From: Bimuria novae-zelandiae CBS 107.79
Lineage: Eukaryota; Ascomycota; Dothideomycetes; Pleosporales; Didymosphaeriaceae
NCBI GenBank assembly: GCA_010015655.1
Contig: ML976739.1
Location: forward strand, 56,821-120,820
Length of the DNA stretch: 64,000 nt
Direction of reading: 5' to 3'
The notes beneath the pieces are model-generated. The model did no database searches, was not told the DNA's origin, and saw nothing but the letters and a program-made list of their open reading frames with translations. Position numbers and translations under genes: made by a program. Position 1 is the first letter of the stretch. Each line of letters starts with the position of its first letter. Positions 48,139 to 50,059 of the stretch are shown here, piece after piece.

Positions 48139-50059
48139 TCAAAAGCAATCATCAAACGATGGTAACGTGACCGTAGCATCTGCTCCATATCTCATTGCCA
48201 CGATTTCATCACCGGGGTAGAGCAAACGGCTGCCGAAGGAATTCAGCTGGTTGTCGAGTTCAGCATGCCTGAAGGATTCGCTGTCGTGGAAGGGCCCGTC
48301 CAGGTTTAGCCCTTGCGGCGGCACTTCATTTTCGTTGAAGGCTTCGGCGGGCTGAATGTAACTCATGATGTTGTCCATGATAGCATTGGAGGTGGTTGTG
48401 TCGATATGGCCGAAGGGATAGTATGCAGCGTCTGGTGAAGGAGCAGTGTCTGGTAGAGAAGCAGCGGCCATAGCAGCTCGTGCTGTCTTCCGTGATTGAC
48501 GCTTCTTCTTCTCACCAGGTTTGCGAGGATTATACTTGTACTCCGGGTACGTGCGCCGGTGCTCTTCTTTTGCTGCCTTGGCGCGCGCTCGCCAGTGGTC
48601 CTTCTTCGCTTCAGAGAGGTTCTTCCATTCTTTGGAACACTCAGTCGCTATTGAGTGTCAGAACTGATGTTTCAAAAACAAGATTTGTTAGGTGATAGCA
48701 GAAGGTGGAAAACTACTTACATATTTGCTGGACTGTCATCTGTGGGTTCTGATCCTTGAGCTGCTTGTGGTGTTCGTCGCGAAACAACATCCAGCAGTTC
48801 ATCGGGCGAGGAGCCTTCTTTCGCATTGCCGAAGCAGGGTGGTTCGTGTGTGCCGGTTGCTTGGGACCGTTCGAAGTGAGTGACGGAGTGGGAGCCGGAG
48901 ACTGCAGACTCAACGGCAAGCTGAGATCTCGCTCTGGCGCGCGTTGAATGATTGTAGCAGTGCCGTCATCGCTGTCAAAAATGTCGACGGCGCAACCAAG
49001 TTCAAGACCAAGCTGGAGGGCGAAAAGATCTCTCATCATAGCATTGCTGAAGCGGGCTTCGACGTTGCCAGGGAGCAGGTGGAGTGATTCGTGGGCGAGG
49101 GAGGTTTTGCAGTGGTCGAGATCGTCGCCAAACATGGAGATACGGTACTGATCATAAGGCGTAGGGTGAAAAGGCTGCGAGCTGCTAGAGGCCTGCAAAG
49201 GCATGAAGGGCTCCACCGCTGTGCGTCGGTGGGTGGACGCTTGATGCTGGAGATGTGTGCAAGTATTCTGAGAAAGGTTGTTCGAGAGGAGAGTGGAGAG
49301 TGTGGCGAAAGTAGTGGTCGTTGTCGGATTGGAATGACCGAGGAAAGTCGAAGAGGTTGAATTTGGAGCCAGGATAAAGCCTTGAGCGTAGCCCATAGAT
49401 TGACAATGGCGAATAACGTCCTCAACAGAGTGTGCTTCATCTACGGCTCCAACTTGTGTGGAGGCTCCGGGACGGCGAACGAGCTTGGGCAAGTTGAGCT
49501 GATCAGTCTGCAAGGTCCATCCGAATTGGTTCAAGTATTGCTCAGGCGAAGGTATGTTGAGAAAAGGACAGGCATAGCCGAAGAACTCATCGAGAGGGGC
49601 TCTGTTCTTTCCGATCTGATCGCGGATGGTTGACCATGCTTTCGTCATCAAAGACCACTTGGATTTATTCGGATCGGATTCCCATATTGTTCCAATTGGC
49701 TGAGAAAGCTCCTTCATTTGCCAGCCTTTGTTTTTGAAGTCAGGAATTTTTATGTAGTAGCCTGAAGATGTGTTAGTGTTGGTTCAAGTGAAACAAGGGC
49801 GACATGCAAACATACAGCGGAACCCGACAAAAGCGTTAAGAGGCTTTTTGACTTTTCTTAGAACTGATGCACAACCAGACGCAGCTGGTGGTGCAACCAG
49901 AAGCGCGGTAGCGAGAGCGGCTTGCGCATACGGATCTTGCATTGACTGCATCAGTTGCACCATTTGAGCCCCAGTGCGCGTCGCCAGATGATTTTGGATC
50001 TCGAGAGGATTGGGAGGTTGAGTGTCGCCTTCAAGGCATGGTTGACTGAAAATAGCCAT
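48139..50059 (-). CDS. Fused mating-type gene MAT1-1-1::MAT1-2-1 (alpha-box plus HMG-box)
   Basis: Three exons: 49816-50059, 48721-49761 and 48139-48647; 597 residues. The alpha-box (about residues 68-166) reads [17 protein letters not shown], then [35 protein letters not shown] and YLNQFGWTL. It is interrupted after FR/C by a 54-bp intron at the usual MAT1-1-1 position. The same exon 2 frame then runs without a stop through about 230 linker residues. It enters an HMG box (about 396-470): [20 protein letters not shown], then an intron inside the Ser codon of QQIS, then [20 protein letters not shown] and [17 protein letters not shown]. Both proteins are DNA-binding regulators of mating and sexual development. 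Separate alpha and HMG genes, or a promoter inside the linker (ATG at 49135 is in frame), remain alternatives. APN2 and COX13 lie downstream. Confidence 0.92.

What the first reader, a model, noticed from the sequence alone, without database searches (positions are those of the whole stretch)
48139..50059. One gene encodes both mating-type regulators: an alpha-box/HMG-box fusion at the MAT locus
The alpha-box and HMG box that normally mark opposite mating types (MAT1-1-1 and MAT1-2-1) lie in one gene, with the middle exon (1041 nt) open across the junction. Each domain keeps its own intron at the usual MAT position, so both halves look like genuine, constrained MAT sequence. It predicts a 597-residue chimera and a self-fertile strain. 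Fused MAT genes are known from self-fertile Cochliobolus species (such as C. luttrellii). This locus, with its different neighbours, looks like an independent case. Whether the fusion protein works whole or is processed is open.
Basis: partly seen in the sequence, partly recalled or inferred. Interest (0 to 1): 0.95.

Follow-up and report, generated by a model that had tools for sequence, protein, structure and literature searches.

The report
Fused mating-type gene in Bimuria
In this soil fungus the two regulators that normally mark opposite mating types are joined in one gene, so a single strain probably carries everything needed to mate with itself; the public annotation splits the gene in two, and such fusions were already known in a few other fungi.

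Summary
On the minus strand, 50059-48139, one gene of three exons (introns 49815-49762 and 48720-48648) reads for 597 residues through a MAT alpha-1 domain (PF04769) and a MATA-type HMG box (PF00505). My searches found no second MAT copy in the 77.4-Mb genome. Two database proteins identical to residues 1-225 and 394-597 identify the strain as Bimuria novae-zelandiae CBS 107.79 (Pleosporales, Didymosphaeriaceae). There the gene is annotated as two models, the first 'partial'.

The joint can be placed. MAT1-1-1 homology stops near residue 225, before the usual basic motif and the tail. MAT1-2-1 is whole from codon 264, a GTG where the nearest relatives have their start ATG; codons 226-263 look like MAT1-2-1 leader read as protein. 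The only strong basic cluster left lies in the HMG half, so I infer that one polypeptide acts.

Fused MAT genes are known (Cochliobolus luttrellii, C. homomorphus, Exophiala sideris), so this is a new member of a known kind. A census of nine fused proteins suggests that fusions, in both orders, arose several times in Pleosporales; Bimuria's groups with stand-alone genes of its own family. Transcript and self-fertility are untested.

The parts
48139..50059 (-). Fused MAT gene (MAT1-1-1 / MAT1-2-1), 597 aa
   Evidence: spliced frame; PF04769 and PF00505
49816..50059 (-). Exon 1 (MAT1-1-1 N-terminus, start of alpha domain)
49762..49815 (-). Intron 1, in the alpha box
   Evidence: GTATGT...CTTCAG; implied by public model P0139; same acceptor position in environmental ORFs P0140, P0141, P0146
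48721..49761 (-). Exon 2, 1041 nt, open from the alpha box to the HMG box
48648..48720 (-). Intron 2, in the HMG box
   Evidence: GTAAGT...CAATAG; implied by public model P0179; four environmental ORFs run on after the same 'IC' residues
48139..48647 (-). Exon 3 (rest of HMG box, basic cluster, C-terminal tail GADATVTLP, stop)
49331..49963 (-). MAT alpha-1 domain and conserved downstream region, residues 33-225 (spans intron 1)
   Evidence: PF04769 E 3.8e-49; YLNQFGW core motif at residue 157
49217..49330 (-). Junction zone, codons 226-263: no clear homology to MAT1-1-1 or MAT1-2-1 proteins, G-poor (0.11), read as old MAT1-2-1 5' leader (inferred)
49214..49216 (-). Codon 264, GTG (Val), where close relatives have the MAT1-2-1 start codon
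   Evidence: 36 residues to the conserved Cys as in P0009, P0020, P0045, P0047, P0051; VEPF against MEPL/MDPL
48535..48811 (-). HMG box, residues 399-466 (spans intron 2)
   Evidence: PF00505 E 3.1e-24; 0 of 36 conserved columns changed
44790..46740 (+). APN2-like DNA lyase (approximate ends; exons not refined)
   Evidence: PF03372 and a weak GRF zinc finger in ORF 45102-46592
44231..44521 (-). COX13-like cytochrome c oxidase subunit VIa, part (approximate)
   Evidence: PF02046 E 1.8e-4, below the curated cut-off

Best explanation
It is one fused mating-type gene. In a self-sterile (heterothallic) ancestor, an illegitimate crossover joined MAT1-1-1 after codon ~225 to the 5' leader of MAT1-2-1, just ahead of its start codon (inferred; the parental DNA was not seen). 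The MAT1-1-1 promoter and start now drive a single 597-residue transcription factor with two DNA-binding domains, an alpha-1 (MATalpha_HMG) domain and a MATA_HMG box, so one haploid strain expresses both mating-type functions and should be self-fertile (inferred). The old MAT1-2-1 start is now GTG, and the alpha half lacks its usual basic motif, leaving the basic cluster of the HMG half as the only strong one. I read both as signs that the product works as one polypeptide. Shown: the frame, the domains, a single copy as far as searched, the place of the joint at protein level, and an origin separate from the other fusions found. Not shown: transcript, protein, selfing.
For: Open 597-codon frame with both full domains. 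Only MAT copy found in the genome. Alpha half 57-62% identical to MAT1-1-1 of Paraconiothyrium and Paraphaeosphaeria; HMG half 43-48% identical to Paraphaeosphaeria and Didymosphaeria MAT1-2-1 along nearly their whole length. HMG box keeps 36 of 36 conserved columns, alpha region 62 of 66. Joint mapped. Alpha-domain core modelled with confidence (block means 89-95 for residues 81-180). STE2 and STE3 receptor families both present. Stand-alone MAT1-1-1 proteins are its nearest rows in the alpha trees.
Against: The database carries two models for this locus, residues 1-225 ('partial') and 394-597; the join is not annotated. No RNA data were available. Four conserved alpha columns are changed (A73P, P96Q, G171N, I197V); 16 of 63 stand-alone proteins, some of them fragments, change as many, but the median is 1. 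There is also a 2-residue insertion. 13 of 63 stand-alone proteins also lack the basic motif as I wrote it. M268 could still start a separate MAT1-2-1. No record of selfing was found.
Confidence: 0.72

Rival explanations
1. Two proteins from one locus: a shortened MAT1-1-1 from early polyadenylation or alternative splicing, and a MAT1-2-1 from an internal promoter with a start at M268 (49204) or M394 (48826), as the public models suggest.
For: Public models end at residue 225 and start at M394. M268 lies near the usual start (32 residues to the conserved Cys; 58 of 64 relatives 33-36). The 114-nt junction zone is G-poor like the gene's own leader (0.11 against 0.12).
Against: No in-frame stop for a separate MAT1-1-1. 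The 'partial' model ends where homology ends, as a homology-driven prediction would (inference). M394 would leave out 130 residues that align with relatives. A separate alpha product would lack the basic motif. Only about 114 nt of presumed old leader remain.
Confidence: 0.18
2. The fused gene is real but decaying or non-functional: an asexual or relaxed lineage in which one half no longer works.
For: Four changed conserved columns, an insertion and the missing basic motif and tail in the alpha half. HMG half on a longer end branch than the median (0.77 against 0.31).
Against: Frame intact, introns canonical, HMG box unbroken. Alpha end branch equals the median, 0.48.
Confidence: 0.07
3. Assembly artefact: two haplotypes or two idiomorph copies merged into one.
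For: None beyond the lack of reads to check; the protein records rest on the same assembly.
Against: An in-frame join with no stop, one copy on a 335,518-base contig, no second haplotype found. Similar joined ORFs in other environmental contigs show that such joins occur; they do not check this assembly.
Confidence: 0.03

Closest known systems
Cochliobolus luttrellii fused MAT (AAD33439)
   Same: As recalled from Yun et al. 1999 (not held here): one ORF, MAT1-1-1 part first, then MAT1-2-1; homothallic. PMC3574095 (passages) gives seven shared nucleotides at its junction.
   Different: A different family (Pleosporaceae, recalled). The C. luttrellii protein did not appear among the hits of my three searches, so the two joints were not compared.
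Curvularia (Cochliobolus) homomorpha fused MAT, Q9Y8D5 (P0001)
   Same: Both domains in one 705-aa protein.
   Different: Opposite order, HMG first; by eye joined without a leader stretch and with the tail of each half largely kept.
Decorospora gaudefroyi (P0002), Massariosphaeria phaeospora (P0004) and an unnamed protein (P0005)
   Same: Both domains in one predicted protein. In P0004 a stretch before an internal Met also looks, by eye, like read-through leader.
   Different: HMG first; gene predictions as far as I can tell, so merged neighbours cannot be excluded; separate places in the alpha trees.
Environmental exon-2 ORFs P0137, P0140, P0141, P0146
   Same: Alpha first, then HMG, in one uninterrupted frame.
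   Different: All four keep the R[RQ]xxR basic motif that Bimuria lacks; three lack most of the MAT1-2-1 N-terminus. In P0140 the HMG match is just under Pfam's cut-off (24.3 against 25.4 bits).
Exophiala sideris / E. viscosa fused MAT (PMC10411609, passages)
   Same: Single fused MAT gene, presumed homothallic; not confirmed experimentally there either.
   Different: Another class of fungi (recalled); the HMG domain is said to lie inside the alpha box, splitting it.

Membership tests
Ascomycete MAT1-1-1 (alpha-1 domain) proteins | PF04769 domain | tested here: met
   residues 33-225, 167.1 bits against cut-off 28.1
Ascomycete MAT1-1-1 (alpha-1 domain) proteins | Y-[LMIF]-x3-G-[WL] core motif downstream of the alpha-1 domain (PMC2999568, section 8) | tested here: met
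   YLNQFGW at residue 157
Ascomycete MAT1-1-1 (alpha-1 domain) proteins | Downstream R[RQ]xxR basic motif (usual in Pleosporales, not defining) | tested here: not met
   present in 50 of 63 stand-alone proteins, absent from the fusion
MAT1-2-1 (MATA_HMG) proteins | MATA-type HMG box with flanking MAT1-2-1 sequence | tested here: met
   PF00505 85.6 bits; 0 of 36 conserved columns changed; homology along nearly the whole of P0009
Fused MAT1-1/MAT1-2 genes (C. luttrellii type) | Both domains in one reading frame at the single MAT locus | tested here: met
Fused MAT1-1/MAT1-2 genes (C. luttrellii type) | One transcript | not testable with these tools
   no RNA data
Fused MAT1-1/MAT1-2 genes (C. 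luttrellii type) | Confers self-fertility | not testable with these tools
   no strain data; paper searches listed no report for Bimuria
Pezizomycotina MAT locus | APN2 and SLA2 near the MAT gene | tested here: met
   APN2-like ORF beside it; SLA2 (PF01608) on the same contig, but about 67 kb away

The most novel reading that the evidence does not exclude
The Bimuria fusion has become obligately bifunctional. The alpha half gave up its own basic (nuclear-entry-like) motif and C-terminal tail, the MAT1-2-1 half gave up its start codon, and each now depends on the other within one polypeptide. That would make the change to selfing hard to reverse, unlike side-by-side MAT genes, and would be one of several parallel cases in Pleosporales.
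Probability: 0.35. Interest if true: 0.66.

Novelty: new member of a known kind. Interest (0 to 1): 0.5.

Why it matters
MAT1-1-1 and MAT1-2-1 are the master switches of opposite mating types. A natural protein that carries both asks whether a cell can tell self from non-self in mating when both regulators share one chain. The window adds a named strain outside Cochliobolus, with a mapped joint, a changed start codon and a missing basic motif, each of which gives a direct test. The small census suggests that such fusions arise again and again, in both orders, and that annotation can hide them: here the public models split the gene in two.

Tried and rejected
Assembly chimera: no second copy or haplotype found. 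Frame-shifted MAT1-1-1 tail in the linker: the genome search with P0003 at E up to 10 matched nothing past its residue 234, and a reading of the other two frames by eye showed none. Codon-usage log-odds did not set the junction zone apart from the rest of the gene. Base composition did, only weakly: 72 of 5416 windows in 14 Pfam-supported ORFs are as G-poor, and three of eight neighbouring genes, with guessed starts, have leaders with G at or below 0.14, the other five 0.17-0.26. Mating-type switching by loop-out: no direct repeats of 18 nt or more flanking MAT were found in 46500-52600, only a local duplication at 47090-47422. Fold search with the alpha-half model: none of 81 Foldseek matches reached E 0.001, and the second look (287 chains) covered mainly residues 11-62. 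It says nothing for or against an HMG-like fold. Solved structures by sequence: the 46 matches lie on the HMG half (SRY, SOX, HMGB and the like), none on the alpha half. Yun et al. 1999 and Woudenberg et al. 2012 are not held. Junction microhomology at DNA level could not be tested: no DNA of relatives was available.

Rows dropped: the counts rest on the 138 proteins; the 41 that one search added were used only for the census and three rows of the exon-2 tree. One search scored only the 7995 candidates sharing most words. The trees used 32 of 63 stand-alone MAT1-1-1 and 27 of 65 stand-alone MAT1-2-1 rows, chosen for spread and names; five HMG-only hits outside 300-470 aa were left out of the 65. 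The alpha set includes fragments (such as P0052 and P0138), which raise its maximum. The basic-motif and tail counts use simple patterns that miss near-variants.

Full report
What is there. The minus strand at 50059-48139 holds one gene of three exons with two short introns at consensus sites, giving 597 residues. Residues 33-225 match the MAT alpha-1 domain PF04769 (E 3.8e-49) and residues 399-466 the HMG box PF00505 (E 3.1e-24). Exon 2 is 1041 nt and open from one domain into the other.

Which organism. A search with exon 2 returned two proteins of Bimuria novae-zelandiae CBS 107.79 on a contig of 335,518 bases, the length of contig C84 that holds the window. P0139 ('mating-type protein MAT alpha 1, partial') equals fusion residues 1-225 and P0179 ('hypothetical protein', HMG box) equals residues 394-597, letter for letter; both imply the introns used here. 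The window is therefore that strain, family Didymosphaeriaceae. The public record has two models with residues 226-393 unassigned. I had no transcript data.

Locus and copy number. The family and protein searches of the 77.4-Mb assembly find MAT1-1-1 only here. MAT1-2-1 with P0009 gives two strong hits, both here, and three weak ones elsewhere (E 1.2e-4, 1.66 and 9.65); the other HMG-box places align poorly to the fusion or not at all. The 8-kb locus occurs once. An APN2-like gene and a weak COX13-like match lie on one side, and SLA2 is on the same contig about 67 kb away. A paper on Laburnicola rhizohalophila names sla2, apn2, cox13 and apc5 around MAT and reports both MAT genes in all individuals studied (PMC8629976, passages; its 61.4-Mb, 42-scaffold assembly is not this one). 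The neighbours are thus ordinary. Receptor families STE2 and STE3 each match at one place, STE3 over its first 126 of 292 positions.

Where the joint lies. Against six stand-alone MAT1-1-1 proteins, homology runs from residue 1 through 'TFLGHS' (225) and then fades (BLAST ends at 222-265 depending on the row). What follows in the relatives, a basic motif R[RQ]xxR (50 of 63 stand-alone proteins, including all four family-clade members P0003, P0006, P0007 and P0052) and a long tail, is missing. Against MAT1-2-1 proteins homology runs to the last residues. The conserved Cys (C299) is 36 residues from codon 264, counting both, the same as from Met1 in P0009, P0020, P0045, P0047 and P0051; 64 of 65 MAT1-2-1 rows have that Cys, and in 58 of these 64 the count is 33-36. 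The letters at codon 264 (VEPF) face MEPL in P0047 and MDPL in P0045 and P0051, though the 36-residue stretch as a whole shares only 8-10 residues with each of the five. Codon 264 is GTG, so the old start codon has probably been lost, though M268 remains. Codons 226-263 match neither parent clearly, are poor in G (0.11 against 0.21 and 0.23 in the two halves) and resemble the gene's own leader (0.12). I read them as former MAT1-2-1 leader. This is an inference: codon usage does not set the zone apart, other leaders in the window vary (0.11-0.26), and a 38-codon open frame of that composition is not rare.

Are both halves constrained? In a leave-one-out test on columns at least 90% conserved, the HMG box changes 0 of 36 (65 stand-alone rows: median 1, maximum 6). 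The alpha region changes 4 of 66 (63 rows: median 1, maximum 24; 16 rows change 4 or more). The core motif Y-L-x3-G-W, whose tryptophan matters in C. heterostrophus according to unpublished work cited in PMC2999568 (section 8 read), is kept. A model of residues 1-225 has mean pLDDT 80.7 and block means of 89-95 for residues 81-180, across the 2-residue insertion. The fold search gave nothing useful.

How it probably works. The only basic cluster that my pattern finds in the fusion is KKKR at 475 in the HMG half. With the alpha half's basic motif gone and the MAT1-2-1 start codon changed, the simplest reading is one two-domain transcription factor that supplies both mating-type functions and makes the haploid strain self-fertile. 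Single chain, selfing and nuclear entry are inferred, not shown.

Is it independent? Of 179 proteins returned by my three searches, eight others hold both domains: P0001 (C. homomorpha), P0002, P0004 and P0005 with HMG first, and P0137, P0140, P0141 and P0146 from environmental contigs with alpha first. The alpha tree places the window's alpha half with stand-alone proteins of Didymosphaeriaceae (five rows, 100/99 support). The HMG half is nearest to Didymosphaeria and Paraphaeosphaeria by path length, but its fork is open. The alpha tree needs at least 5 changes for the six fusions first found; one clade for all six is rejected (p-AU 1.3e-38), as is one clade for the two alpha-first ones then known (p 7e-5); long branches are present, which the test shares. 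With nine fused rows the exon-2 tree needs 8 changes, at least 5 forced by strong branches; changes count gains and losses alike. P0002 and P0004 are gene predictions and may be merged neighbours, and I could not tell how P0005 was called; the four environmental ORFs and Bimuria exon 2 are continuous frames.

What is known. Fused MAT genes were described in Cochliobolus luttrellii and C. homomorphus (Yun et al. 1999, recalled, not held). PMC3574095 (passages) gives the seven shared nucleotides at the C. luttrellii junction. Exophiala sideris and E. viscosa have a fused gene with the HMG box inside the alpha box (PMC10411609, passages). My ten paper searches, of which named Bimuria, listed no report of this locus; lists were capped and the library lacks most subscription journals. 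The finding is a new member of a known kind; its joint lies earlier in MAT1-1-1 than in the other four alpha-first rows.

Noticed in passing
window 47090-47422: A local duplication with a spacing of about 172 bases (two 56-61-nt blocks, 86-87% identical) lies between MAT and APN2.
   Followed up: partly
proteins P0137, P0140, P0141, P0146 (environmental contigs): Four further uninterrupted alpha-first fused MAT frames; in three of them only 50-81 residues separate the alpha region from the HMG box, so most of the MAT1-2-1 N-terminus is missing.
   Followed up: partly
C-termini of stand-alone MAT proteins and window 48139-48198: MAT1-1-1 (55 of 63) and MAT1-2-1 (50 of 65) of Pleosporales end in a similar GA[ND]...[LM]P tail; the fusion keeps one copy. 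Possibly a shared 3' end of the two idiomorphs.
   Followed up: no
G000:C84:173997-174501: SLA2 lies about 67 kb from MAT, much further than APN2.
   Followed up: no
window 26845-28329: A RhoGAP/F-BAR gene about 20 kb from MAT; a GTPase-activating gene flanks MAT in Cochliobolus (recalled), homology between the two not tested.
   Followed up: no
L025 3082-3342 (G000:C7): Another HMG-box gene of the FILYRQHH type near a contig end, about 28% identical to the fusion's box; not a MAT1-2-1 copy.
   Followed up: partly
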